33,144 bases of DNA, from positions 1-33,144 of the forward strand of contig OMVY01000015.1 in NCBI GenBank assembly GCA_900314635.1, read 5' to 3'. This stretch comes from an uncultured Methanobrevibacter sp. (GTDB taxonomy: Archaea > Methanobacteriota > Methanobacteria > Methanobacteriales > Methanobacteriaceae). Positions 4,049 to 32,538 of the stretch are shown one piece after another (the stretch's first letter is position 1; each line of letters starts with the position of its first letter). Position numbers and translations under genes: made by a program. Under the pieces are notes generated by a model that worked only from the letters and a program-made list of their open reading frames with translations, searched no databases and was not told the origin of the DNA.

Positions 4049-5056
4049 ATGTCTTTATATGATATGGAACTTGACAAGGTCATAGCTAGAATCAAGGCTG
4101 TGGATGCTAGAAATGTAGGCTTGCAGTTTCCTGAAGGCCTCAAGATGCAGGCTGTAGCTATTGCTCGTGAAATCGAGGATAAGACCGACGCTACTGTCAT
4201 CATATCAGGTGATCCCTGCTTTGGAGCCTGCGACGTATCCGACCGCAAGATGAAGGGCATAGTGGATTTCATAGTTCATTACGGCCACACTCCCCTTCCT
4301 CTCAAGTACTCCATCCCGACAATGTTCCTGCCGGCCAAGGCGCAGATCAATATTAAAAAGCATTTGGAAAATGCACTTGAATATCTGGAAGACTATTCAA
4401 AGGTTGCTGTTGCCACAACAGCCCAGCATCTTCATCTTCTGGATGAAATGGTTGATTTCTTAGAGGATAATGGAAAGGAGGTTGTTGTAGGCTCATCCCG
4501 CAGCACCAAGAAGGGCCAGGTCTTAGGATGCAATTTCTCATCAATCAAGAATCTTGATGCTGAAGTTTATCTCTTTATTGGAAGCGGCAATTTCCACCCT
4601 TTAGGCATTAGGTTGTTCACCAAATCCGTTGTGCTTGCCATAGACCCTTACAGCGGTGAGATAAGAAAAATGGACGAATATGCCGATAGGATTCTAAGGA
4701 TACGATTTGCAAGAATCATCAAGGCCCAGACAGTTCAAAAATGGGGGATAATTGTCTCATCCAAGGAAGGTCAATACAGGATGAAGCTTGCCAAGGAGCT
4801 GAAGAAGATTCTCAAAGAGGAGGGCATGGAAGCTTATATAATCGTATTGGACCATGTCAACCCTGATGTTCTCCTTCCATATATGGAACTGCAGGGTTTT
4901 GTTGTCACAGCATGTCCTAGAATAGCTATTGATGACTCTCAAATGTATGAAAAACCGGTTATCACTCCTCAAGAACTTGAAATAGTTTTAAACAAGAGGG
5001 AATGGGAAAAATACCAATTGGATGAGATTTCCTTTGAGGACAGGTATTATCAATAG
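4049..5056 (+). CDS. dph2: Diphthamide synthesis protein Dph2
   Basis: Archaeal Dph2 (335 residues) is a non-canonical radical SAM enzyme. It transfers a 3-amino-3-carboxypropyl group from S-adenosylmethionine to a histidine of elongation factor 2, the first step of diphthamide synthesis. The three separated cluster-cysteine regions are visible: GDPCFGACD (Cys57/Cys61), the VLGCNFSS stretch near residue 165, and [12 protein letters not shown] near residue 286. The start is the first ATG after an in-frame TAA at 4016-4018. No Shine-Dalgarno site precedes it, so the mRNA may be leaderless or weakly initiated. It is the last housekeeping gene before the NRPS block. Confidence 0.95.
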
Positions 5057-5085: not shown

Positions 5086-5271
5086 AGTTTATTTGATTTT
5101 TGGGTGATGTTTTAGTAAATTTGAATGAGTTTATTTTGATTTTTTGGTGATGTTTTAGTAAATTTGAATGAGTTGATTTTTTTGTGATGTTTTAGTAAAT
5201 TTGAATGAGTTGATTTTTTTGTGATGTTTTAGTAAATTTGAATGAGTTTATTTTGATTTTTTGGTGATGCT
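5086..5271 (+). repeat. T-rich tandem repeat array carrying the NRPS ribosome site
   Basis: A core beginning GTGATGTTTTAGTAAATTTG recurs at 5104, 5147, 5184 and 5221. A truncated fifth copy at 5264 reads GGTGATGC and runs straight into the NRPS start codon at 5272. The spacings are 43, 37, 37 and 43 bases, in a symmetrical order, because the linker between cores exists in a long and a short form. A degenerate linker is visible from about 5086. The last copy supplies the Shine-Dalgarno sequence GGTGAT. The full copies carry the same GTGATG followed by an immediate ATG-TTT-TAG. Confidence 0.9.
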
Positions 5272-8200
5272 ATGAAAAATTTAAATAAATATAATAATTG
5301 TTTAACAAATGTGCCTAATGTGATCGAATCAACATTCAATCAAATAATTTTAAATTTTGATAGGGAAGTTGATGAATCTTTTTTTATTTCAGCAATGATT
5401 ATTTATTTATCCAGAATAAATCAGTCTGAGGGAATAATTTTTAAAATTTACAGAAATAATTATGAAATTCCTCTAAAACTTGATTATAATGAGAACATTT
5501 CAGTTAATTCATTATTGTTAGAAGTGGATGATTTGATAAGTAATATCCAAGTGAAGGAGCATGTTTTTGATAATGAATTATTGCATGCATATTCTTTTTT
5601 TAACAAAAAGATTAATGATGAGTTCGTTCCTCATGAAAAATCTATTTTAAACTGTTTGTTTGATGGAAAATCCATTGAATTCGTTTATAATGACAGTATT
5701 TTTTCACAGATTCAGATGGAATTTTTAATTGATAGTATTAAGGACATAATTAAACGCATGGATGAAAATCAGGATACTCTTTTAAAAGATTTAAATATTG
5801 TTTCAGATAATGAAATGGAAATCTTGAAAAGGTTTTCAAAAACAGACACTCTGGATTTCGATAATAATAATGAAACAATAATGGATTATATTCATAAAAA
5901 TGCTTTAAAATCACCAAACCAAATAGCAATTTCTGATACAATCACTAATGTAACTTATGGGGAATTTGATAAATATATTAATGCTTTATCTGCAATATTG
6001 CATAATCTGGGTGTTGAAAAAGGGGAATGTGTTGGCGTCTTGCTTCCAAGAATTCCAATGTATATTGTCTCATGTATGGGAATTACAAGAAACGCATCTG
6101 TTTTTGTTCCTCTTGATTTAACCTATCCGAAGGATCGGATTGATTATATTATCGAAGAGAGTGGAATGAATTATATCATATCCTCCAAAACAGTTGATTA
6201 TGCCTCACAGTTTGAAGACAAAAATATTTTATATATTGAGGAGTTAGATTGGGGCACCGATGAGGTATCTCCAAATAATGTTGTTGCTAGTGATTTGGCT
6301 GCAATATATTTCACATCAGGTTCAACAGGTAATCCTAAAGGGGTTAAGACCTCCCATTACACTTTTTTACTTGAAGCATTATACTCTTCAAAATACCTGA
6401 CATCCGGATCGGACATTGCATGTTATGTTAACTTAACTTTTTCATTTTCTGTTGTATCGTATTCTGCTTTTGTTAAAGGAGCTAACTGCATTATAATTAA
6501 TGAATATCTTAAAGAGAATGTCCCAGAACTAATAGAATTTCTGCAGGTCACTCCTCTTGATGCTCTGATTTTACCTACAATTCTTGGAGCAACAATATTG
6601 GAGCGAACAGAAATTAAAACAAAGAATATGATTATAGCGGGGGAACGATTAAAAGAGGCAACTCCAACAATTTTAAGTCGTAAAACAGATTTAATAAATT
6701 GTTATGGGTCTACTGAAGCTTTAGTAATGGCCTATCAGGATGTAAAGAAAGCATCACAATTGGATGAAATCCCCGTTGGTTATCCTGCTGGAAATACATG
6801 GATTTATATCTTGGATAAAAATAACATGCCTCTTCCAATAGGAGTTCCTGGTGAAATTGTTGCCTCCAGTTTGAAATTAGCTCTCGGATATCACAATAAT
6901 GAGGCGCAAACCAATGAGACCTTTGTCGAAAATCCATTTTCTGACTGTTGGGAAAATAAAAGAATGCTTCACACTCGAGATCAAGGATATTTTACTTTTG
7001 ACGGAGAATTAGTGGTTAAGGGAAGGATTGACCGACAAATTAAACTTAGAGGTTTAAGAATCGAGCCGGGTGAAATTGAAAATGTCGTTTTGAATTATTC
7101 TCCATCAATCACCAATGTTGTTGTTGAACTTAGAAATGATAACCTCGTATGTTATTATATTAGTGATGATGAAATTGATGAAGATGACTTAAATGAATTT
7201 ATAAAGGGAAAGGTAACACCTTATATGGTTCCTTCATTTTATATGAAAATGGATGAGTTCCCTCTTAATTTAAATGGAAAAGTGGATGTCAAGGAACTTC
7301 CAACACCTGAATTCGCCATTGAGGAAATCGTTGAGCCGAAAACAGATATTGAAATTAAATTATTCGAAATCATCTCTAACATACTAAAAACAGACAAATT
7401 CGGTATCACTACAGATTTAGTCAGGTTAGGTTTAAATTCACTGTCATCAATAAAAATAGCTTATGAAATAGCATCCAATTGGGGAGTTCAACTCAGTATC
7501 AAGGAACTCAATGATGCAAAGGACATTCAGAACTTGGCATCTCTAATCGATGCTCCAAGCGAATTGACAGAGGTAGTCCATGAAAAGCAAGAATTATATC
7601 CTTTAAGCCAAAATCAATTGGGAGTTTACTTCGAATCCATAAAACATCCGGACAAGCTGATTTACAACACCACATCCGCTGTTGATTTGGGGGCAGGTAT
7701 TGATGTTGAAAAGCTTAAAAGCTCAATTGTTAACCTGGTTGATAAATACACATACCTGAAAAGCATATTATTTGAAGAAAACGGAAAAACATATCTTAAG
7801 AGGCAGGACGATGAGCCTGTTAATGTTGACGTGTTTGAAAATCCGGCAACAGATGAGATTAAAAACAGTTTTGCACGCCCATTCGATTTGTTCAAAGGGC
7901 CATTGTATCGTTTTGAAATTTATCATACTGTGGATAAAACAATCCTGCTCATGGATGTTCATCACATTTTGTTTGATGGAACTTCAGTCAATCTATTCAT
8001 TAATGAGCTATTGGATGAATATGATGACATTAATGATGCAGAGGAAGTTAGCTCCGGATTTGACTTTATTTTAGATGAAAAAGAACTTGAAGGAAGTGAA
8101 AAATACCTGAAATCCAAAGAGTTCTTTGAAGATAGGCTGGCGGATATTGAAAATGTGACTTCAATCAATCCGGATAAGGCTGGTGAAAAAGAATCAGGTT

Positions 8201-11200
8201 CTCTTAAGGAGGTTTCAGTTCAAATCAACAAGGAGAATATTTTCGAATTCTCTAAAGTAAATGGAATAACTCCTAACAGCTTGTTTTTAGCGTCATCCCT
8301 TTTAACATTATCAAAATTCTCATACACTAAGGACATGTTATTAACCACAATTTCCAATGGAAGAATCAATCCAAAGTATTTCAAGACATTGGCAATGATT
8401 GTAAGGTCACTTCCGATTGCAATGACAATTGACACCAACCAAAGTGTCTTGGATTACATTAATTCCGTTAATGAAACCTTTGTCGACACAATCGATAACG
8501 AATCATATCCATTCACTAAAATATTTGAGGAACATAATTTTATTCCGGAAATCTATTATGCTTACCAAGTAGGCCTGTTTGATGAAAAGATATTGAAAAA
8601 CGGAAATAAGGTTAATGTCGAACCGCTGGAACTTGATTATCCAAAATTCAACATTTGCATATATGTGGAAGAGGATTTGGAAAACATAAATCTTATAATA
8701 CGCTATAATGACCAGTTATATTCACATGGATTGATGGAATCATTAGTTGAAAGCATTAATGTGGTATTGAACAAATTTATGAATTCCTTAAATGAAAATG
8801 CTTCAGATATTTCACTTTTAACTGACTTTGAAGAAAATGAAATAGCTAAAAAAGAAGCGGAATTAACATTAAATATAAACGAACCGTTATTGAAAGATAA
8901 ATTTGAATATGTTGCTTCTAAAAAACCAGATGAGATTGTAGTGTATGCAGTTGATGCTAATCTGACTTTTGAAGAACTTAACGCTAAAGCAAATGTATTT
9001 GCAAATTCATTAATTGACAGTGGTTTTAAAACAAATGATAAAATCATATTGAAATTGAAAAGGACTTCTAAATTAATGATAGCACTCATCGGTTCCCTAA
9101 AAGCCGGTGTTTCTTTCATTCCGGTTGACCCTAAGTATCCTCAAGAGAGAATTACTCATATTCAGGAGGATAGCGGATGTAAGATGATTATATCAGACGA
9201 TCCGCTTACAGGTGAAGTAGGCATTGATAATTTGCTTAATGGCTCAAACACTACAAATCCAAAATTGGATTTGAAAAATGATGACATTGCATTCTTAATT
9301 TACACATCCGGTTCAACAGGTCTTCCAAAAGGAGTAATGATAAAACAGGATAGCATTACAAATTACATCAAACCTACTCCAAAAAACTCTCCAATAAATG
9401 CAATAGCGAGGGATGTTTCTAAAATGCTGTCCATTACAACCGCATCTTTCATTGCATTTTTACGTGAAGCCTTCGCATCAGTAATGAATGGAGTTCCAAT
9501 GGTGCTTGCAGATGAGGAAGCATCAATGAATCCAATTAGGCTGGCAAACTTAATCAAGGAGCATGGAATTGATGGAATGTCCGCAACACCATCCAGATTG
9601 CAGCAATATTTAACAATCGAGGATTTCAAAAGGGTTTTAAATGACATCAAGGTAATCACAATTGGTGGTGAAAAGTTCATAGAGTCATTGTACCCTACAT
9701 TAGTCAAATATACCAATGCAGACATTTACAACTCATATGGTCCAACAGAAGTCACCATTGCATCCCATGCAAAACTTATGAAGGACAGTAATGTATCTGA
9801 AGGAAAACCTATCCACAACACTATCGATTTAATTGTGGATCTTGACAATAATCCATTGCCTGACCATATTGTGGGAAATATTGCAATTGGAGGTGTTGGA
9901 GTTTCTTCAGGGTATTGGAACAAACCTGAGTTAACCGAGAAGGCATTCTATATCAAGAATGGTATTCCTTATTATAACACTGGAGATTTGGGTTATAAAC
10001 GTGATGATGGAGAGCTTGTGGTTGTCGGAAGGGCAGATTCACAAATTAAGCTTAGAGGTTTGAGAATAGAAACCGGTGAAATCGAGAATGTCATACTGAA
10101 AAATAGTGGGATTGATTTGGTGTTTGTTAATGTTCAAGTCATCAATGATACCGAATACTTATGTGCATACTATGTTGCAGACTCTGAAATTGACACCAAT
10201 AAATTAAAAGAGGACATTTCACAGGAATTAACAGATTATATGATTCCAACATTCTTCATTCAATTAGAAGAGTTACCTCTGAACCCTAACGGTAAATTGG
10301 ATAGGAAAAAATTGCCGCTTCCATCAATTGATGATGAGATAACTGAAGTTGTTGAGGCTTCAAACGAATTGGAACAAATTGTATTGGACATGTGCAGGGA
10401 CATTATCTCAAAAGACGATTTCGGAGTCACAACCAATCTGTTCAACATTGGTTTCACTTCATTAACTGTTATTCAGCTACTTGCAAGGATTTCCGAAGAG
10501 CTTAAAGTCGATGTAAGCATCATGGACATGATGAAATCCAAAAATGTTCTGGATATTGTCGAGTTGATTGATGCTGCGGATATGGTATCTGAAACTGAAG
10601 AAGCGGAATTGAGGGAATATTATCCTTTAACTCACAACCAATTGGGAGTTTACTTTGACTGCATTAAAAATCCTGATAAGATAGGATATAATCTGCCGAA
10701 GATCATCAGGTTTGATAAGAGTGTGGATTCAGCAAAATTAAGGAAAGCAATCATTGATGCTATTGATTTGCACTCCTATTTGAAAATGGAGCTTGTCCAA
10801 AAAGACGGGCAGATATTGCAAAAGCGAAATGATGAACTCGACATTTCAGATTTGGTGACAATCACAACACAGGATGTGGAAGTAACTAAAGAGGATATTG
10901 ATGCGTTCATACGCCCATTCTCATTATATGATGACTTATTATTCAGGTTTGAAATCATTGAAACACCTTCAGAAGTGGTATTGCTCAATGATTTCCACCA
11001 TTTGATATTAGACGGAACATCAGCTAACCTCTTCTTCAGAGACATTACCCTGTTCTATGATGGCAAAATCGATGATATCCCAGAGGAGACAGTGGATGCA
11101 TTTGAATACAGCCTGATTGAAAATGATTTGGAGAACTCAAACAAGTACAAGCAGGCTGAAGCATTCTTTGACAGGCAAATTTCCGATTTTGATGAATCAA

Positions 11201-14200
11201 CTGTTGTCACACCTGACCTTGAATCCAATGATGAAGGTGTCTTATGCACTAATGAACTGTCCTTGAATGCCAGTGATGTTCATAGTTTCTGTAGAAAAGA
11301 AGGCATAACTGAAAACAACCTGTTCCTATCCGCTACAATCTTGGCATTGTCCAAGTTTAGTTTTTCAAGAGATCTATTGATTTCAACAATCTCCACAGGC
11401 AGAACCAATCCAAAATATAGGAATACCATTGGAATGCTTGTAAAAACACTTCCGTTTACATGCCACATCAAGTCAGAAAAATCCGTTAAGGATTTAATCG
11501 AGGATGTTAACGAAAACTGGCTCAACACTTTGAATTATGAGTTTTATCCATATACCAAAATCGCAAATAAATATGATCTGACTCCTGAATTCCTCTACGT
11601 CTATCAAGGAGAGATTATTGAGGATTTGAACATGAATGGCAGGACCTATGAAAGGGAAAGAATTGATTATGACTCCCTAAGGTTCAAGATATCATTCAAT
11701 GTTTTAGAGGAAAAAGGTGAATTGAAATTAATCAACCAATATGACAATTCACTTTATTCAAGCCATATGATTGACCTGTTTAATGAGGCGGTTAAAAAAA
11801 TCGTTGAAAAATTCATGGCTTGCGAGATATCCGAAACAATGGTTAAGGATATTGGACTTGTAGAGGAGCCTGAACTTGAAGAATTTGACTATTCATTCAA
11901 TCCTTTCCTGAATGAGGTGTTCCATGAGACAGTTGAGAAAAATAAGGATAAGCTGGCTTTAATTGCTGAAGATGGTGAATTCACATATGATGAGCTCAAC
12001 CGCAAGGCCAATCGTATTGCCAACGCCTTAATCAAGAAAGGAGTCAAACCTGGAGACAAGGTTTTATTCAAACTTAAACGTGACAGCAACCTGACCGCAT
12101 CCATGTGGGGAATTATTAAAGCTGGAGCGGCATTCATTCCAGTTGACCCTGAATACCCTGATGAACGTATCAATTACATATATGGCGACTCTGAGGCGGA
12201 TTACATCATTTCTGATTTCAGCGACAACAACACATTGAATGTATTTGACTTGTTGAAAGAAGAGAATGAAACCAATCCTGTAGTTAAATTCGATCCGGAT
12301 AATCTAGCATTCATGATTTACACATCAGGCTCAACAGGCAATCCTAAGGGTGTCATGCTCACACATAGAAACATTACAAACTATTTGCTCTTAAAACCTG
12401 AAAACAACTACATTACTGATGTGGTGACAAACAGAAAACGTGTTTTAGGAATTCAAACAGTAACATTTGATATTTCAGTCTGTGATGTTCTAGTTCCGTT
12501 GACACATGGTTTGACATATGTATTTGCCAGTGATGTTGAAGCAAAAGACGTGCTTGCCCTTGCGAAACTGATCAAGCGTACAAAAGTTGATGCAATGGCT
12601 GGAACTCCTTCCAGATTATTCCAATATCTCGATTTGGAAGAGATGAAGGAGGCATTCAAAAATCTCAAATCCGTTTCCCTTGGTGGTGAACCGTTTAAAC
12701 CCCAATTGTTTACCCGAATTAAATCCATCAATCCGGATGTCAACATCTACAACGGTTATGGACCTTCAGAAACTACAATCCATACAAATCACAAACTGCT
12801 TACAAGTGCTGACAATATTACAACAGGCAAGCCAAATTACAATGTGATCATGGACGTTCGTGACATTGACGGCAACTTGGTCCCGGATGGAGTGATGGGT
12901 GAAATATATATCGGTGGTCTGGGAGTAGGAAAAGGTTACCTGAACAAGGAAAAACGTACAAAAGAGTCATTCATTAAAATCAATGGAATTAATTATTACA
13001 AATCCGGTGATTATGGTACAATCGACTCTGAAGGAGAATTTGTAATTCACGGAAGGTTGGATAATCAAATTAAGCTTAATGGTTTGAGAATTGAATTGGG
13101 AGAAGTTGAGCAGTCAATCTTGAAATTCGGCAAAATCAAGGAAGTTGTTTGTGCAATCAAGAAAATCAATGAAAATGACCACTTATGTGCTTATTACACT
13201 TCCGATGAGGAAATCGACAAGGATGAACTAAAGGACTTCATTTCAAAAACATTGACAAAATACATGGTTCCATCAGTATTTGTACAACTTAATGAATTGC
13301 CTTGGACCTTGAATGGTAAAATCGAAGTTAAGAAACTGCCTATTCCGGAAATAACAAATGAATATGTAAAACCAAGCAATAATGTTGAAGCGTTCTTCGC
13401 ATCTGCATTTGAAGAGATTTTAGGATTAAACAAGGTTGGAGTTACAGACAACTTCTTTGACATCGGCGGAACATCATTGCTTGTTACAAAACTCACAATC
13501 AGTGCCTTGAATGAAGGTTATGAAGTCCAATATGCGGACATATTCAATCATCCTACTCCAAGAGACCTGGCACAATTCATTTCAGGCGAGGAAATTGTTG
13601 AAAGCGAGGAAAGCCAATACGACTATTCAAGAATTGATGAGCTTTTATCTCAAAACACTATGAATAACTTCTTAAATGGCGATTTACGCGATTTAGGTAA
13701 TGTCTTGCTTACTGGAGCAAGCGGATTTTTAGGAATTCACATACTTAAGGAGCTCATTGAAAATGAGGAAGGCATTATTTATTGTCTGCAGCGTGCCGGA
13801 AAAAGCATTACTGCAGAAGACAGATTGAAATCCCTGCTCTTTTACTATTTTGATGAGAATTATGAAGACCTCTTTGGAAAAAGGATTATTGTTGTTGAAG
13901 GAGACATTACCAATATTGAAGACTTTAAAAAGCTTGAAAATTACCCAATCGATACGATTATCAATGCCGCTGCTAATGTAAAACACTTTGCTGAAGGCAG
14001 TCAAATCGAGGATGTTAACATTTTCGGTGTGATGAATGGATTGGAATTTGCTAAAACCGTTGGAGCATGCTATGTTCAAGTCTCAACAACAAGTACCGCC
14101 GGTGAAAGCGTTAATAATTTCCCTCCTAGGGATACAGTATTTGACGAGCAGACATTGTATGTTGGTCAGGCATTGGACAACAAATATCTCTCAAGTAAGT

Positions 14201-14793
14201 TTGCTGCTGAACGTCTTGTCCTGGAGCATGTTGTTGAAGGCGGAGATGGAAAAATCGTCCGTGTAGGTAATCTGATGGCAAGGGAATCTGATGCAGAGTT
14301 CCAGATCAACTTTGAGTCAAATGGTTTCATCAACCGTATAAAAGCATATGTCACATTGCATGCGATGCCATTCGACTTGCTTGTTGCACAAACTGAATTC
14401 AGTCCGATTGATGTTGTGGCAAAATCCATCGTAACACTATCCAAGACACCAAGATTAAACACTGTGTTCAATTCATATAATAATCACTACATCACTTATG
14501 CTGATGTTTTGCATGTGCTTAAATCTCAAGGTTATGAAATGGATAAAGTGGAAATGGATGAATTCAATGAATTGCTGGATAAGGCTCGAAAGGATGAATC
14601 CAAACAGGAAGGTATTTCAGGACTTGTCACACAGGTAGGTATGGGCAAATCCAAGAACAGGAGCATTATTGATGTGTCAAATACCTTTACAATCAACATC
14701 TTGAATCATTTTGATGTGTACTGGCCTTTAACAACCTATGATTACTTGAATAACTTTATCAATTATCTTCAATCAATGGGATTTTTGGAATAG
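5272..14793 (+). CDS. Three-module nonribosomal peptide synthetase with terminal reductase
   Basis: This giant enzyme (3173 residues) assembles a short peptide on carrier domains. The visible order is: half a condensation domain (1-190); A1 (SGSTG 349-353, A10 Lys670); carrier 1 (Ser723); C2 (from 776, HHILFDG 897-903); A2 (SGSTG 1346-1350, Lys1675); carrier 2 (Ser1730); C3 (from 1784, HHLILDG 1909-1915); A3 (SGSTG 2352-2356, Lys2683); carrier 3 (Ser2735, GGTSL); and a thioester reductase (TGASGFLG 2814-2821, YLSSK 2972-2976) that should release an aldehyde or alcohol. The A4 aspartate binding the alpha-amino group is Ser391 in A1 and Ile1394 in A2, but Asp2400 in A3. There is no thioesterase, epimerase or MbtH gene, and no phosphopantetheinyl transferase in the window. 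GGTGAT precedes the ATG. The product is unknown. As I recall, M. ruminantium M1 has comparable NRPS genes beside MATE exporters. Confidence 0.95.
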   Translation: MKNLNKYNNCLTNVPNVIESTFNQIILNFDREVDESFFISAMIIYLSRINQSEGIIFKIYRNNYEIPLKLDYNENISVNSLLLEVDDLISNIQVKEHVFDNELLHAYSFFNKKINDEFVPHEKSILNCLFDGKSIEFVYNDSIFSQIQMEFLIDSIKDIIKRMDENQDTLLKDLNIVSDNEMEILKRFSKTDTLDFDNNNETIMDYIHKNALKSPNQIAISDTITNVTYGEFDKYINALSAILHNLGVEKGECVGVLLPRIPMYIVSCMGITRNASVFVPLDLTYPKDRIDYIIEESGMNYIISSKTVDYASQFEDKNILYIEELDWGTDEVSPNNVVASDLAAIYFTSGSTGNPKGVKTSHYTFLLEALYSSKYLTSGSDIACYVNLTFSFSVVSYSAFVKGANCIIINEYLKENVPELIEFLQVTPLDALILPTILGATILERTEIKTKNMIIAGERLKEATPTILSRKTDLINCYGSTEALVMAYQDVKKASQLDEIPVGYPAGNTWIYILDKNNMPLPIGVPGEIVASSLKLALGYHNNEAQTNETFVENPFSDCWENKRMLHTRDQGYFTFDGELVVKGRIDRQIKLRGLRIEPGEIENVVLNYSPSITNVVVELRNDNLVCYYISDDEIDEDDLNEFIKGKVTPYMVPSFYMKMDEFPLNLNGKVDVKELPTPEFAIEEIVEPKTDIEIKLFEIISNILKTDKFGITTDLVRLGLNSLSSIKIAYEIASNWGVQLSIKELNDAKDIQNLASLIDAPSELTEVVHEKQELYPLSQNQLGVYFESIKHPDKLIYNTTSAVDLGAGIDVEKLKSSIVNLVDKYTYLKSILFEENGKTYLKRQDDEPVNVDVFENPATDEIKNSFARPFDLFKGPLYRFEIYHTVDKTILLMDVHHILFDGTSVNLFINELLDEYDDINDAEEVSSGFDFILDEKELEGSEKYLKSKEFFEDRLADIENVTSINPDKAGEKESGSLKEVSVQINKENIFEFSKVNGITPNSLFLASSLLTLSKFSYTKDMLLTTISNGRINPKYFKTLAMIVRSLPIAMTIDTNQSVLDYINSVNETFVDTIDNESYPFTKIFEEHNFIPEIYYAYQVGLFDEKILKNGNKVNVEPLELDYPKFNICIYVEEDLENINLIIRYNDQLYSHGLMESLVESINVVLNKFMNSLNENASDISLLTDFEENEIAKKEAELTLNINEPLLKDKFEYVASKKPDEIVVYAVDANLTFEELNAKANVFANSLIDSGFKTNDKIILKLKRTSKLMIALIGSLKAGVSFIPVDPKYPQERITHIQEDSGCKMIISDDPLTGEVGIDNLLNGSNTTNPKLDLKNDDIAFLIYTSGSTGLPKGVMIKQDSITNYIKPTPKNSPINAIARDVSKMLSITTASFIAFLREAFASVMNGVPMVLADEEASMNPIRLANLIKEHGIDGMSATPSRLQQYLTIEDFKRVLNDIKVITIGGEKFIESLYPTLVKYTNADIYNSYGPTEVTIASHAKLMKDSNVSEGKPIHNTIDLIVDLDNNPLPDHIVGNIAIGGVGVSSGYWNKPELTEKAFYIKNGIPYYNTGDLGYKRDDGELVVVGRADSQIKLRGLRIETGEIENVILKNSGIDLVFVNVQVINDTEYLCAYYVADSEIDTNKLKEDISQELTDYMIPTFFIQLEELPLNPNGKLDRKKLPLPSIDDEITEVVEASNELEQIVLDMCRDIISKDDFGVTTNLFNIGFTSLTVIQLLARISEELKVDVSIMDMMKSKNVLDIVELIDAADMVSETEEAELREYYPLTHNQLGVYFDCIKNPDKIGYNLPKIIRFDKSVDSAKLRKAIIDAIDLHSYLKMELVQKDGQILQKRNDELDISDLVTITTQDVEVTKEDIDAFIRPFSLYDDLLFRFEIIETPSEVVLLNDFHHLILDGTSANLFFRDITLFYDGKIDDIPEETVDAFEYSLIENDLENSNKYKQAEAFFDRQISDFDESTVVTPDLESNDEGVLCTNELSLNASDVHSFCRKEGITENNLFLSATILALSKFSFSRDLLISTISTGRTNPKYRNTIGMLVKTLPFTCHIKSEKSVKDLIEDVNENWLNTLNYEFYPYTKIANKYDLTPEFLYVYQGEIIEDLNMNGRTYERERIDYDSLRFKISFNVLEEKGELKLINQYDNSLYSSHMIDLFNEAVKKIVEKFMACEISETMVKDIGLVEEPELEEFDYSFNPFLNEVFHETVEKNKDKLALIAEDGEFTYDELNRKANRIANALIKKGVKPGDKVLFKLKRDSNLTASMWGIIKAGAAFIPVDPEYPDERINYIYGDSEADYIISDFSDNNTLNVFDLLKEENETNPVVKFDPDNLAFMIYTSGSTGNPKGVMLTHRNITNYLLLKPENNYITDVVTNRKRVLGIQTVTFDISVCDVLVPLTHGLTYVFASDVEAKDVLALAKLIKRTKVDAMAGTPSRLFQYLDLEEMKEAFKNLKSVSLGGEPFKPQLFTRIKSINPDVNIYNGYGPSETTIHTNHKLLTSADNITTGKPNYNVIMDVRDIDGNLVPDGVMGEIYIGGLGVGKGYLNKEKRTKESFIKINGINYYKSGDYGTIDSEGEFVIHGRLDNQIKLNGLRIELGEVEQSILKFGKIKEVVCAIKKINENDHLCAYYTSDEEIDKDELKDFISKTLTKYMVPSVFVQLNELPWTLNGKIEVKKLPIPEITNEYVKPSNNVEAFFASAFEEILGLNKVGVTDNFFDIGGTSLLVTKLTISALNEGYEVQYADIFNHPTPRDLAQFISGEEIVESEESQYDYSRIDELLSQNTMNNFLNGDLRDLGNVLLTGASGFLGIHILKELIENEEGIIYCLQRAGKSITAEDRLKSLLFYYFDENYEDLFGKRIIVVEGDITNIEDFKKLENYPIDTIINAAANVKHFAEGSQIEDVNIFGVMNGLEFAKTVGACYVQVSTTSTAGESVNNFPPRDTVFDEQTLYVGQALDNKYLSSKFAAERLVLEHVVEGGDGKIVRVGNLMARESDAEFQINFESNGFINRIKAYVTLHAMPFDLLVAQTEFSPIDVVAKSIVTLSKTPRLNTVFNSYNNHYITYADVLHVLKSQGYEMDKVEMDEFNELLDKARKDESKQEGISGLVTQVGMGKSKNRSIIDVSNTFTINILNHFDVYWPLTTYDYLNNFINYLQSMGFLE

Positions 14794-16527
14794 ATGATTA
14801 AAATGTATGAACGTAATTATGAATTATTAAGAAGTAAATTCAGTGAATTTTTCCTGCCGACATTGTTCACTTCAATGGCGGGAAATATCTGCTTGTTTGT
14901 GGATGGTTTAATTGTAAGTTTTTTACTGGGTGCCGGCAACCTGTCTGCAATTCAAATCGTGGCTCCTGTGGCTACATTTGTCAATCTGATTTATTGGATG
15001 ATAGGTCTGGGAGGCAGCGTGCTCTGTTCTGTTGCAAAAGCCGAATTCGATTCGAATAAAAGCAATTCTTACTTTACAGTTGCAATAATGTCTCTTTTCT
15101 CAATAGGGATATTGATTGCAGTTTTTGGAGTAGCGTTTTCAGGATCTATTGCAAAATTCCTATGTGCTTCACAGTCTGCTCTGATTCCGGATGTTACTAG
15201 CTATTTTGTTTTCTTAATTATCGGGATGCCATTTTTATGTTATATGATGAGTTTATCATACTTCATAAGAGCAGATGGTATTCCAACATTACCATTTAGA
15301 GCAATATTGCTGGCTAACATTATAAATATCTGCTTTGATGTTATTTACATCAAATTCTTCGCATTGGGTATTGGCGGTGCGGCATTAGCCTCTTCAACAG
15401 GTTTCTTAATGGGTTCCATATTCATTTCATATTACTTCTTCAAATCAGAACGCACATTGCAATTCATTAAGTTGAAAGCTGGAAAATTCTTCAATTATCT
15501 CAAAGAGATTGTCACTTCAGGATTTTCATCTTCATCAACACAATTGTACCTGACATTGAAGTTGTTCATCATAAACATTTTGCTTGGGATATATATTGGA
15601 AAATCAGGGCTTGTTGCATTTGGAATATGTTATAACAGTTTATTCATATTGTATATCTTCTTGATAGGAACCGCTCAAACCATGTCTCCAATCGTCTCAG
15701 TTTATTTTAAGGAAGAGGACTATTCAGGTGTTAGTTATGTAATACACAGATCATTGAAAATAGTTTTGGTTTCAAGTTTGGCGTTATCTGCTCTATTCAT
15801 AGTCTATCCTCAATCATTGCTGATGCTGTATAGTGTTAAAAATCCTGCTGATGTTCCTGTGGTATTGAATGCTTTAAGGATATTTGCAATAAGTTATGTT
15901 GGAACTGCAATAACATTTTTATACACTTTCTATTCCCAGGCAATACAAAAAAATCAATTATCTACAATCATTTCATTGCTTGAAGGATTGGTATTGCCTA
16001 TTGGATTTGCAGTTGCATTGTCCTTCGTGTTTGGTGGAAATGGAATTTGGATTTCCTTTGCATTGGCAGAAATATTTACAATAGTGTTCATATTTGTTTA
16101 TTCAAAGTATATTAACAAAAAAACAGATGGAGAATATTCCGGCTTCTTTATCAATAAGCATAATGATGATAATGTATTTGAACACACTATAAAAGGCAAT
16201 ATTGAAGAGGCGGTTAATTTATCTCGTGAAGTTCAAGATTATTTAAAAGACAATAAATCCTCAACTCTTGTCAGTTTGGCCATTGAAGAAATGCTTGTAA
16301 ATATCATTAATAGTAATGATGAGGTCGACACAATAGATGTGATTGTCAGAGATAATGGCGATGAAATATTGATTTCCATTAAGGATACTGGAATTGATTT
16401 CAACCCGGTTATTGAAAATGATAATATGGAATTTGACAATATCAGTGTTTTGAATAAAATTGCGGAAAAAATCGATTATTCTAGAGTGTTAGGTTTGAAC
16501 AGTACTGTAATCACTATTAAAAATTGA
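14794..16527 (+). CDS. MATE-family exporter fused to RsbW-like ATPase domain
   Basis: Residues 1 to about 440 form a polytopic membrane protein of the MATE/polysaccharide-flippase superfamily, with about twelve hydrophobic helices. Such proteins export small molecules using an ion gradient. Residues about 450-577 are soluble and look like a GHKL ATPase of the RsbW anti-sigma type: an N-box IEEMLVNIIN (Glu498, Asn503) and a G1-like box KDTGIDFNP (Asp531, Gly533). The start codon abuts the NRPS stop codon with no gap, so translation is probably coupled; a second in-frame ATG lies at 14803. The position implies export of the NRPS product. What the ATPase domain does is unknown, since archaea lack sigma factors; it might phosphorylate a STAS-domain partner encoded elsewhere. 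Confidence 0.88.
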   Translation: MIKMYERNYELLRSKFSEFFLPTLFTSMAGNICLFVDGLIVSFLLGAGNLSAIQIVAPVATFVNLIYWMIGLGGSVLCSVAKAEFDSNKSNSYFTVAIMSLFSIGILIAVFGVAFSGSIAKFLCASQSALIPDVTSYFVFLIIGMPFLCYMMSLSYFIRADGIPTLPFRAILLANIINICFDVIYIKFFALGIGGAALASSTGFLMGSIFISYYFFKSERTLQFIKLKAGKFFNYLKEIVTSGFSSSSTQLYLTLKLFIINILLGIYIGKSGLVAFGICYNSLFILYIFLIGTAQTMSPIVSVYFKEEDYSGVSYVIHRSLKIVLVSSLALSALFIVYPQSLLMLYSVKNPADVPVVLNALRIFAISYVGTAITFLYTFYSQAIQKNQLSTIISLLEGLVLPIGFAVALSFVFGGNGIWISFALAEIFTIVFIFVYSKYINKKTDGEYSGFFINKHNDDNVFEHTIKGNIEEAVNLSREVQDYLKDNKSSTLVSLAIEEMLVNIINSNDEVDTIDVIVRDNGDEILISIKDTGIDFNPVIENDNMEFDNISVLNKIAEKIDYSRVLGLNSTVITIKN

Positions 16528-16579
16528 ATATTGCAAGCTTCATCTCGCAGAAACTAATAAAGAGTGTTTAATTTTTTTG

Positions 16580-16603
16580 AAAGAGTCTTTTTTAAGGCTC
16601 TTT
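16580..16603 (+). terminator. Hairpin terminator after the NRPS/MATE unit
   Basis: AAAGAGTC (16580-16587) and GGCTCTTT (16596-16603) form an 8-pair stem with one G-U pair and an 8-base T-rich loop. T-rich runs flank it. It lies 53 bases after the exporter stop codon and probably ends the two-gene transcript. Confidence 0.6.
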
Positions 16604-16681
16604 AAAAACTTTTTGATTTATTTTTCCTTATATTTAAATTTCATGGCATGTCGACAAATTTTGAATCCGTCCTTTTTAACC

Positions 16682-16723
16682 TAATCGAATTTTTTATATT
16701 TAATCTAACCGAATTTTTTATAT
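16682..16723. repeat. Short direct repeat in the exporter/csl4 spacer
   Basis: TAATCGAATTTTTTATAT (16682-16699) and TAACCGAATTTTTTATAT (16706-16723) differ at one base and are spaced 24 bases apart. The rest of 16604-16820 is AT-rich and shows no gene. The function is unknown; the second copy ends in a TATA-like stretch. Confidence 0.6.
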
Positions 16724-16825
16724 ACTAATAATAAACATATTAAATTACATATGAAAAATTAGACATGTTTATGAATTTTTTGATATTTTAAAAAACTTCC
16801 AAATTTTATTAAAAACTTTATCATG

Positions 16826-16963: not shown

Positions 16964-17530
16964 ATGAAGATCAATACTGGAGATTTTGTAATGCCTGGTG
17001 ATTTCTTAAGCGTAAGCGAACAATTCCTGCCGGGTGACGGGGCATATGAAGATGACGGCAGCGTCAAATCAGCTACTGCTGGAAATGTATCAATCGATAA
17101 AAAGGCAAAGGAAATCTCTGTAATTTCAAAATCAAACGGCCCTAATCTGTTGAAAGTGGGAGACATAGTTTATGGTGAGATCAAAGACCTTCGCGGTCAA
17201 AGAGCATTAGTCACTGTTCATGCTAAAAAAGGAGAAACAAGAGAACTTGCATTGCCTTATCTGGCGGCTATTCACATTTCTCAAATCACTCCTGGCTATA
17301 TTGACAAGATTACCGATGCTTTTAGAATAGGCGATTTGATAGAAGCCCGCGTAGTAAAAATAATGAAGGACAATATTGATTTAAACACTGAAGACAGGGA
17401 CTGCGGTGTTGTAAAGGCAATGTGCACTAAATGCAGAGCTGAAATGGATCCTGTCAATCAGGACGAAGTCTACTGTCCTGTATGTGACAGAAAGGAGAAA
17501 AGAAAAGTCTCTTCAAACTATGAAGAATAA
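16964..17530 (+). CDS. csl4: Exosome subunit Csl4
   Basis: Csl4 (188 residues) is one of the RNA-binding cap proteins of the archaeal RNA exosome, which trims and degrades RNA from the 3' end. Visible parts are an N-terminal domain with the MPGDFL and EQFLPGDGAYEDDG motifs (about 1-55), an S1 RNA-binding domain (about 63-140, starting at the LKVGDIVYGEI strand), and a C-terminal zinc ribbon with CTKC (154-157) and CPVC (171-174). The ATG is preceded by GAGGTG. It begins the transcription/replication/translation run that continues to about 26177. Length and domain order are standard for archaea. Confidence 0.96.
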   Translation: MKINTGDFVMPGDFLSVSEQFLPGDGAYEDDGSVKSATAGNVSIDKKAKEISVISKSNGPNLLKVGDIVYGEIKDLRGQRALVTVHAKKGETRELALPYLAAIHISQITPGYIDKITDAFRIGDLIEARVVKIMKDNIDLNTEDRDCGVVKAMCTKCRAEMDPVNQDEVYCPVCDRKEKRKVSSNYEE

Positions 17531-17534
17531 TTGA

Positions 17535-17623
17535 ATTTCAATCATTTATTGAAATTAAGTTTTAGAATTATTTTAAATTAAGTTATTTCAATCATTTATT
17601 TGAAATTAAGTTTTAGAATTATT
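17535..17623. repeat. Twin hairpin repeat between csl4 and rpo11
   Basis: Two nearly identical copies of a 38-39 base unit lie at 17535-17572 and 17585-17623. Each contains an inverted repeat: TTTCAAT-CATTT-ATTGAAA in the first copy and TTTCAA/TTGAAA in the second. Both are followed by TTAAGTTTTAGAATTA. They may act as tandem terminators or processing sites between csl4 and rpo11. Confidence 0.7.
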
Positions 17624-17671
17624 AAGTTTATAATGCGATTTTAATTTTATTTATTGGCAAGTGTGGTATTT

Positions 17672-17950: not shown

Positions 17951-18344
17951 GATTATTCATTTAATCTTAATTTCTTCTTTTTTTACTATTTTTTTATAAT
18001 TTTAGCTTTTGGTTTTTTCAATCATTTTTTATAATTTTAGCTTTTGGTTTTTTCAATTATTTTTTTATAATTTTTAACTTGCTTCCCTTATTTTTTTTAA
18101 AAATTTTCAATTTTTTTATTACATTCTAAATCTTTTTTTATTTAACTCAATTTTACTAATTCTTTGATTTTTTGCTTAAAAAAAGCTATTTTTTTACTAA
18201 TTTTTAAATTAAGTTTAAATACTATGAAATAATAAACTTTATTTATTATATGTTAACAATGACATATTGAAATTTAATATTTATTAATTGATAAATTCAT
18301 TATCATAATTTTTACTTTTATATATATTGTGTGGTGGTTAAAAA
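17951..18344. other. AT-rich spacer rpo11/tfs with a 35-base direct repeat
   Basis: No gene was found in these 394 bases. A 32-base sequence starting TTTTTATAATTTTAGCTTTT occurs at 17991-18022 and again at 18026-18057, period 35. Long T runs after 17980 probably end rpo11 transcription. TTTAAATA at 18214-18221 is a possible TATA box for tfs, implying a leader of about 100 bases; a second TATA-like string just before 18330 is too close to the ATG for a leader that includes the GGTGG ribosome site. Confidence 0.6.
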
Positions 18345-26177: not shown

Positions 26178-26558
26178 TTATTTAGGCTTTTAAATAATTA
26201 ATTTTTTTATAAAAATAATTTTTTCTAATTCTTTTTTAATTTTTTTAATTTTTTCTATTTTTTCTCTAATCTTTTTTTTAATTTTTTCTAATTCTTTTCT
26301 AATTTTTTTAATTTTTTCTATTTTTTCTCTAATCTTTTTTTTTAATTTTTTCTAATCTTTTCTAATTTTTTTAATTTTTCTCTAATTATTATTCTATTTT
26401 TTTCACTTTTCCCATATGAAAAATTAAATATAATAAGAAAAGGAAATACTTATGTATTGATAAAATTGTGGTATTTCACAATCAATATTAAAATATTATT
26501 TAATAATGTTTAACAAGAATAATCAATTAATTAACTTATACTTATTAGGAATGATATC
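26178..26558. repeat. T-rich spacer with 63-64 base tandem repeat, and ychF upstream region
   Basis: A unit that begins AATTTTTTCTAATTCTTTT starts at 26217, 26280 and 26344, with periods 63 and 64. The third copy is incomplete and ends near 26390. On the plus strand it is almost pure T with scattered A and C, and probably stops transcription from the PAC2 gene. After the repeat, an inverted repeat ATTGTG-GTATTT-CACAAT (26465-26482) lies about 75 bases before the ychF start. No gene was found. Confidence 0.75.
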
Positions 26559-29015: not shown

Positions 29016-29097
29016 TAATGTATTTTTTTGAAAACGGACATATTATTTGAAAAATCGTTAATGTATTTTTTTGAAAACGGACATATTATTTGAAAAA
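29016..29097. repeat. 43-base-spaced direct repeat upstream of hisH
   Basis: A 39-base sequence occurs twice without mismatch, at 29016-29054 and 29059-29097. Each copy contains GAAAACGGACATATTATTTG. The second copy ends 31 bases before the hisH start codon, so the promoter or leader of hisH lies within the duplication. Confidence 0.85.
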
Positions 29098-32268: not shown

Positions 32269-32304
32269 TTTTATTTTTTCATTTTTTTTACTTTTTTTAA
32301 CCTA

Positions 32305-32483
32305 TTTTTCTTATTTTTTCAATCTATAATTTTTCTATTTATTTTTTTCATTAGTTTTCAATAGTTTTTCTTATTTTTTCAATTTATAGGTTTTAATTCA
32401 TTTTTTTCATTAGTTTTCAATTGTTTTTCTTATTTTTTCAATCTATAATTTTTCTATTTATTTTTTTCATTAGTTTTCAATTG
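32305..32483. repeat. 60-base T-rich tandem repeat after the GGGtGRT gene
   Basis: A unit beginning TTTTTCTTATTTTTTCAAT starts at 32305, 32365 and 32424. A fourth start at 32484 gives only a few bases before it diverges. Periods are 60, 59 and 60. Each unit contains CATTAGTTTTCAAT near its end. The array fills most of the 270-base spacer before the ferredoxin gene and probably ends upstream transcription. Confidence 0.85.
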
Positions 32484-32538
32484 TTTTTCTAATGAAATAT
32501 ATTAAAACTTATTAATCATAATTAGAAAATATAATCTT

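What the first reader, a model, noticed from the sequence alone, without database searches (positions are those of the whole stretch)
5086..16603. NRPS and exporter block inserted in a conserved archaeal housekeeping cluster
NRPS genes are rare in archaea. Here a 9.5 kb NRPS and its exporter separate dph2 from csl4, inside a run of genes (srp54, hpt, dph2, csl4, rpo11, tfs, pcn) that, by recall, lie close together in other Methanobacteriales. The block has its own repeat array on the left and a terminator on the right, with no transposase, integrase or att-like direct repeats. This looks like a self-contained biosynthetic cassette with an undescribed product.
Basis: partly seen in the sequence, partly recalled or inferred. 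Interest (0 to 1): 0.8.

Follow-up and report, generated by a model that had tools for sequence, protein, structure and literature searches.

The report
Transplanted peptide-synthesis and export cassette
A gut methane-producing archaeon carries a two-gene unit, a giant peptide-making enzyme and its exporter, that sits between two housekeeping genes that are neighbours in its relatives; the unit belongs to a family already known from rumen methanogens, but this copy is stitched together from pieces that other methanogens carry in other combinations and at other places in their genomes.

Summary
ORF 5272-14793 is a three-module NRPS (A-T-C-A-T-C-A-T-R). It abuts a MATE exporter (14794-16527) and lies between dph2 and csl4. 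In all 14 same-genus genomes with both sides assembled, and in 17 more distant ones, dph2 and csl4 are adjacent; only the window has an insert. The csl4 promoter is intact to its right. Orthologous cassettes (89-90% NRPS identity) occur in genomes whose dph2 is only 72-76% identical, at another locus where flanks could be read: the unit moved horizontally. It is mosaic: two cassettes, one in a Methanosphaera bin, share modules 1-2 (~88%) but not module 3 (~50%), and the exporter's history differs from the reductase domain's (AU p=0.0003). 'Rare' and 'self-contained' need correction: NRPS-MATE pairs have been published for M. ruminantium since 2010 and are common in rumen Methanobrevibacter; the repeat array is not part of the moving unit; the priming enzyme lies on another contig. 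The terminal reductase predicts a peptide aldehyde or alcohol; the product is unknown. The exporter ends in an RsbW/SpoIIAB-like domain and the genome's STAS-RsbW-SpoIIE operon is elsewhere, which suggests, but does not show, partner-switch control of export. New member of a known kind.

The parts
4049..5056 (+). dph2 (diphthamide synthesis), left neighbour, intact
   Evidence: PF01866 1.6e-99; 79-85% identical in same-genus relatives
5086..5269 (+). tandem array, about 4.6 units of 37-43 bp, in the NRPS leader; three units carry GGTGATG, a possible ribosome-binding motif, the last just before the NRPS start
   Evidence: absent upstream of orthologous cassettes
5272..14793 (+). NRPS, 3173 aa, A-T-C-A-T-C-A-T-R with a remnant C domain at the N-terminus
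   Evidence: PF00501 x3, PF00668 x2, PF00550 x3, PF07993; domain map
5272..5871 (+). remnant condensation domain: C-terminal part only, no HHxxxDG
   Evidence: PF00668 positions 404-455 only, 19.2 bits; no HHxxxDG before aa 897
5884..7302 (+). A1; lacks the usual Asp235 (FSFS); about 30% identical to A domains outside its own subfamily
7579..8814 (+). C1, catalytic motif HHILFDG
8902..10317 (+). A2; FIAFLRE in place of FDxS, a motif type shared with the first A domain of M. ruminantium and Ruminococcus homologues
10479..10786 (+). zone (T2 to start of C2) where near-identity to the L207 and L170 cassettes stops: inferred module-exchange breakpoints
   Evidence: blastn segments end at 10479 (L207) and 10786 (L170); profile
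10603..11841 (+). C2, catalytic motif HHLILDG
11914..13341 (+). A3, canonical FDIS motif
13639..14790 (+). R, terminal thioester reductase (TGASGFLG; YLSSK)
   Evidence: PF07993 9.5e-31; best PDB hit 6vtj 4.5e-93, then the AusA reductase 4f6c; motifs
14794..16527 (+). MATE-family exporter (homologues start at MYERN, so the true start may be 14803)
   Evidence: PF01554 4e-23; alignment
16144..16524 (+). C-terminal RsbW/SpoIIAB-like domain of the exporter, without the GGLG box of stand-alone RsbW
   Evidence: PF13581 2.9e-4, below its curated cut-off; AlphaFold2 pLDDT 85; Foldseek best hits UsfX, SpoIIAB, RsbW, TM about 0.7
16574..16608 (+). hairpin, possible transcript end
   Evidence: -12.1 kcal/mol, z -2.9; not found by the consensus scan
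16675..16739 (+). csl4 promoter (AACCGAATTTTTTATATA), conserved in relatives and retained right of the insert; 24-bp unit present twice
16964..17530 (+). csl4 (exosome), right neighbour, intact
   Evidence: PF14382 1.6e-12; 78-82% identical in same-genus relatives

Best explanation
A two-gene NRPS-exporter cassette of the kind known from rumen Methanobrevibacter was acquired horizontally and inserted between the 3' end of dph2 and the promoter of csl4 in this lineage, leaving both genes intact. Shown by sequence: the empty site in relatives, the same cassette in genomes of more distant lineages (at another locus where the flanks could be read), and mosaic composition, by module exchange inside the synthetase and by exchange at the reductase/exporter border. 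Inferred from domains: the phosphopantetheinyl transferase on C19 primes the three carrier domains; module 1 loads a starter acid (A1 lacks the Asp that binds an alpha-amino group, and no working C domain precedes it); C1 and C2 each form one amide bond; the terminal reductase releases the chain as a C-terminal aldehyde, or alcohol after a second reduction; the MATE protein exports it. Most likely control (weakly supported): the exporter's RsbW-like tail is recognised by the STAS protein of the genome's STAS-RsbW-SpoIIE operon, so export follows phosphatase signalling.
For: Empty site: dph2-csl4 adjacent in 31 genomes, 14 of 14 scorable in the genus; csl4 promoter intact right of the insert. 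Transfer: NRPS 89-90% identical to L147/L145, whose genomes have dph2 72-76% and srp54 81-84% identical and dph2-csl4 adjacent; DNA 83.5% over the cassette against 68-75% for dph2 and srp54 of the L147 genome. Mosaic: modules 1-2 about 88% to L170/L207, module 3 and R 45-55%; the exporter groups with two-module cassettes, a grouping the R tree rejects, AU p=0.0003. Function: domains and motifs, reductase match to 6vtj and AusA, PPTase/NRPS co-occurrence 11 of 12 against 1 of 16 in family members at least 85% complete, p=6e-6. Regulation: STAS, RsbW and SpoIIE genes lie divergently beside the orthologous NRPS in L147, STAS and SpoIIE beside the one in M. ruminantium, and all three together on C19 here; RsbW-like fold of the tail. 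M. ruminantium NRPS, MatE and PPTase genes rise together under lauric acid (PMC5816558).
Against: No mobile element, att site or target-site duplication shows how it moved. Cassette GC3 is in the range of the neighbours. Nothing shows expression, product or export in this organism. The exporter tail lacks the GGLG box, so it may bind neither ATP nor partner. L170 is a metagenome bin labelled Methanosphaera and its contig could be misassigned. Unsampled cassettes could change the apparent breakpoints.
Confidence: 0.8

Rival explanations
1. The cassette is ancestral at dph2-csl4 and was lost in all the other lineages.
For: Precise loss in intergenic DNA would leave the same empty sites.
Against: Needs many independent losses within the genus and more outside it, while the closest cassettes lie in more distant lineages whose dph2-csl4 sites are empty.
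Confidence: 0.03
2. Assembly chimera: the cassette was misjoined into this contig of a 36-contig draft.
For: Draft genome; no independent record of the same species was available to check the junctions.
Against: It would need two misjoins, both in intergenic DNA, flanking exactly one complete two-gene unit with gene starts, stops and the csl4 promoter intact.
Confidence: 0.05
3. The cassette travels on a dedicated mobile element or island, here reduced to the cargo.
For: M. millerae SM9 NRPS genes are bounded by transposases (PMC4987999); an integrase-family gene lies about 4 kb from the MATE gene of L147.
Against: No such gene, terminal repeat or target-site duplication in the window.
Confidence: 0.15
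4. The synthetase is an inactive or decaying gene.
For: The N-terminal C domain is a remnant and A1/A2 lack the canonical Asp.
Against: A 9.5-kb open frame; C, T and R catalytic motifs present; the same remnant and A motifs recur in related intact genes, including bacterial ones for A2.
Confidence: 0.07

Closest known systems
M. ruminantium M1 NRPS mru_0068 with MatE mru_0069 (Leahy 2010, PMC2812497)
   Same: NRPS with terminal thioester reductase followed by a MATE gene 80% identical to this one; partner-switch genes nearby
   Different: Two modules with a C domain first, about 44% identical NRPS; located about 180 kb from dph2; RsbW-like tail is a separate ORF; STAS and SpoIIE genes beside it
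NRPS cassettes of Methanobrevibacter sp. RGIG7098 (L147) and S6M_St_15 (L145)
   Same: Same synthetase and exporter, 85-90% identical: true orthologues
   Different: Another locus (L147), with the STAS-RsbW-SpoIIE operon divergently upstream; L145's contig ends at the cassette but its 3' flank matches L147's
Cassettes L170 (Methanosphaera bin SIG24) and L207 (RGIG2413)
   Same: Modules 1 and 2 about 88% identical
   Different: Third module, reductase and exporter of other origin
Rumen Clostridia NRPS-MATE cassettes (L183, L184, L186, L187, L192, L194)
   Same: NRPS ending in R followed by a MATE with the same kind of tail
   Different: About 40% identity; their exporters form a clade placed within the archaeal ones on a long branch
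AusA (aureusimine) and ruminopeptin-type gut NRPSs
   Same: Small NRPS; AusA has a related terminal R domain (4f6c); gut NRPSs of the ruminopeptin type make dipeptide aldehydes (PMC12327764)
   Different: Dipeptide makers, bacterial; this one has three modules and scores far below the AusA equivalog cut-off (1306 against 2500 bits)

Membership tests
Reductase-terminated NRPS | A, T and C domains in modules with catalytic motifs | tested here: met
   3 A, 3 T, 2 full C; HHxxxDG at aa 897 and 1909; three carrier serines
Reductase-terminated NRPS | C-terminal thioester reductase domain | tested here: met
   PF07993; 6vtj 4.5e-93; TGxxGxxG and YxxxK
Reductase-terminated NRPS | Aldehyde or alcohol product | not testable with these tools
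   needs enzyme assay or mass spectrometry
Methanobrevibacter NRPS-MATE cassette | NRPS(R) immediately followed by a MATE with RsbW-like tail | tested here: met
   same order in most loci; tail in 66 of 78 MATE ORFs
Methanobrevibacter NRPS-MATE cassette | Partner-switch genes beside the cassette (as in M. ruminantium); not essential to the family as defined here | tested here: not met
   none in the window; the operon is on C19
AusA equivalog (aureusimine synthetase) | Score above curated cut-off, two modules | tested here: not met
   1305.6 against 2500 bits; three modules
RsbW/SpoIIAB kinase | Fold | tested here: met
   AlphaFold2 model matches UsfX, SpoIIAB and RsbW, TM about 0.7
RsbW/SpoIIAB kinase | Full nucleotide-binding motifs including the glycine-rich box | tested here: not met
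   GGLG present in stand-alone RsbW, replaced by NISVL in the exporter tail
Transposon or integrative element | Transposase/integrase or direct repeats at the borders | tested here: not met
   none; 9-nt longest border match, chance level

The most novel reading that the evidence does not exclude
In archaea, which have no sigma factors, an anti-sigma-type partner-switch circuit acts directly on a transporter: the RsbW-like tail fused to the exporter is the effector that the STAS protein binds, gating export of a non-ribosomal peptide. The cassette around it evolves by swapping whole synthetase modules and exporters between methanogen genera.
Probability: 0.3. Interest if true: 0.7.

Novelty: new member of a known kind. 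Interest (0 to 1): 0.45.

Why it matters
No product of an archaeal NRPS is given in the papers read here. This copy indicates that the cassettes move between methanogen lineages and recombine at module borders, so comparing the mosaics (same modules 1-2, different module 3) offers a natural experiment on what each module contributes. If the product is a peptide aldehyde it would be a plausible protease inhibitor or signal in the rumen, where methanogens and hydrogen-producing bacteria live together. The exporter tail gives a testable idea for what anti-sigma-type regulators do in organisms without sigma factors.

Tried and rejected
Repeat array as a border of the moving unit: rejected, absent from orthologous cassettes, and similar arrays are common in the window. 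Target-site duplication or inverted border repeats: none above chance. Compositional foreignness: GC3 of the cassette (0.31-0.33) lies within the neighbours' range (0.26-0.49). Contig ends just after dph2 in G003, G007, G008 and G010 as hidden insertions: G010 carries the end of dph2 and csl4 together on another contig, G003 has csl4 180 bp from a contig start with no exporter before it, and G007 and G008 remain unscored. Substrate prediction for the A domains: not pursued beyond the motif, because A1 and A2 depart from the standard code. PDB sequence search for the exporter tail gave nothing; the fold search did. The paper believed to describe the archaeal PCP-R structure (PMC8024701, cited in PMC8949500) is not held, so its link to 6vtj rests on recall.
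Full report
What is there. The window is a whole 33,144-base contig (C29) of a 2.29-Mb draft archaeal genome. M. ruminantium M1 is in the same genus: it is identified here as G012 from its genome length of 2,937,203 bases (by recall) and from NRPS and MATE genes that match the published description. The NRPS at 5272-14793 has 3173 residues with the order A-T-C-A-T-C-A-T-R, preceded by about 200 residues that match only the last part of a condensation domain and lack its catalytic motif. The stop codon is followed at once by the MATE reading frame, 14794-16527. The left flank is dph2, the right flank csl4.

The site. dph2 and csl4 are adjacent on the same strand with gaps of 60-988 bp in 30 genomes by direct measurement (33 loci, three of them second copies of the same place) and in one more (G010) from two searches. 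All 14 same-genus genomes in which both sides are assembled have the empty site. Three genomes of other genera do not have csl4 next to dph2. The wider order pus10-srp54-hpt-dph2-csl4-rpo11-tfs-pcn recurs in more distant members of the order. Same-genus relatives carry a conserved promoter-like stretch, AACCGAATTTTTTATATA or close to it, upstream of csl4; in the window it lies at 16707-16739, to the right of the cassette, with a 24-bp unit present twice. The insert therefore lies between the end of dph2 and the promoter of csl4 and breaks neither gene.

The cassette elsewhere. A scan of genome contigs with the exporter alignment returned 77 loci, most of them Methanobrevibacter, and in most of them an NRPS ending in a reductase lies directly before the exporter. 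Four carry the same synthetase type: L145 and L147 are 89-90% identical along the part present, L170 and L207 about 69-70% overall. None of these has dph2 or csl4 beside it, and in the genome of L147 dph2 and csl4 are adjacent at another place. In that genome dph2 is 72% and srp54 81% identical to the window's, so the 89% identical NRPS is closer than a highly conserved housekeeping protein. DNA similarity between the window and L147 runs from 5262 to 16528, that is, the two genes; non-coding DNA diverges faster, so this is consistent with, but does not prove, a two-gene unit of transfer.

Mosaic structure. Against L147 the identity is even, about 89%. Against L170 and L207 it is about 88% up to aa 1700-1800 and then falls to 45-55% for the rest of the synthetase; the DNA match ends at 10786 and 10479 respectively, in C2 and T2. 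The exporter tells a third story: it is mostly 74-86% identical to exporters that follow two-module synthetases whose reductases are only about 54% identical. The exporter tree places window, L145, L147, L146, L148 and L182 together (SH-aLRT 96); holding those six together in the reductase tree is rejected, AU p=0.0003 (the group was taken from the exporter tree before the reductase tree was built). The synthetase and exporter parts have therefore been recombined. The Methanosphaera label of L170 comes from a metagenome bin and was not verified; L207 gives the same result without it.

Function. The third A domain has the usual FDxS motif. A1 has FSFS and A2 FIAFLRE where the amino-group-binding Asp normally sits (position 235 in gramicidin synthetase numbering, placed by motif from established knowledge); the second motif type is shared with the first A domain of M. 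ruminantium and of rumen Ruminococcus cassettes. This suggests an unusual starter and an unusual second unit, but no substrate is assigned. The reductase matches 6vtj (4.5e-93) and the AusA reductase. Gut NRPS products of this type are dipeptide aldehydes, some isolated as pyrazinones. A phosphopantetheinyl transferase is needed; most archaeal genomes searched lack one; this genome has one, on C19. Among family members at least 85% complete, a PPTase is present in 11 of 12 genomes with an NRPS and in 1 of 16 without (p=6e-6; the genomes are related, so the p-value is optimistic).

The exporter tail. Residues 448-577 give a confident model (pLDDT 85) whose best structural matches are the anti-sigma factors UsfX, SpoIIAB and RsbW (TM about 0.7). 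Sequence support alone is weak (PF13581 below cut-off). The tail lacks the GGLG box present in stand-alone RsbW of the same genome. In M. ruminantium it is a separate ORF. STAS, RsbW and SpoIIE genes sit beside the orthologous NRPS in L147, STAS and SpoIIE beside the one in M. ruminantium, and the three together on C19 here. That the tail is a docking site for this circuit is an inference. In M. ruminantium MatE, NRPS and PPTase genes respond together to lauric acid (PMC5816558).

What is known. NRPS with MatE and regulators was described in M. ruminantium in 2010 (PMC2812497), in M. millerae in 2016 (PMC4987999), and surveyed across rumen genomes in 2021, with 687 NRPS clusters in 125 archaeal genomes and the suggestion of transfer from bacteria (PMC8241843). 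The exporter tree here places a rumen clostridial clade inside the archaeal one on a long branch, so the direction of transfer is open. A text search found no paper on a MATE-RsbW fusion, which is weak evidence of absence.

Verdict. What is new is this member, its site, its mosaic make-up and the regulatory tail. Interest 0.45.

Noticed in passing
window 5086-5269, 17535-17652, 17988-18074, 26216-26410, 29016-29097, 32281-32491: Tandem arrays with different units lie in many intergenic regions of this contig; their role is unknown.
   Followed up: partly
L240:7368-10029 (G000:C19:22368-25029): STAS-RsbW-SpoIIE operon, holding the only SpoIIE match found in this genome, far from the cassette; archaea have no sigma factors, so its output is unclear.
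   Followed up: partly
L061:15818-17550: In M. ruminantium M1 the exporter and its RsbW-like tail are two ORFs, fused in the window and most relatives: a fission or frameshift.
   Followed up: no
L183, L184, L186, L187, L192, L194: Rumen Clostridia carry the same NRPS-MATE-tail arrangement; their exporters branch inside the archaeal ones on a long branch, so transfer could have gone from archaea to bacteria.
   Followed up: partly
L232:6198-7301: Phage-integrase-family gene (PF00589) about 4 kb downstream of the orthologous cassette in RGIG7098.
   Followed up: no
G004 (RUG11428), contigs C3, C6, C8, C13, C15, C17, C36: One rumen Methanobrevibacter bin has 27-31 condensation-domain matches, far more than its relatives, and some of its exporter genes have internal stops.
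   Followed up: no
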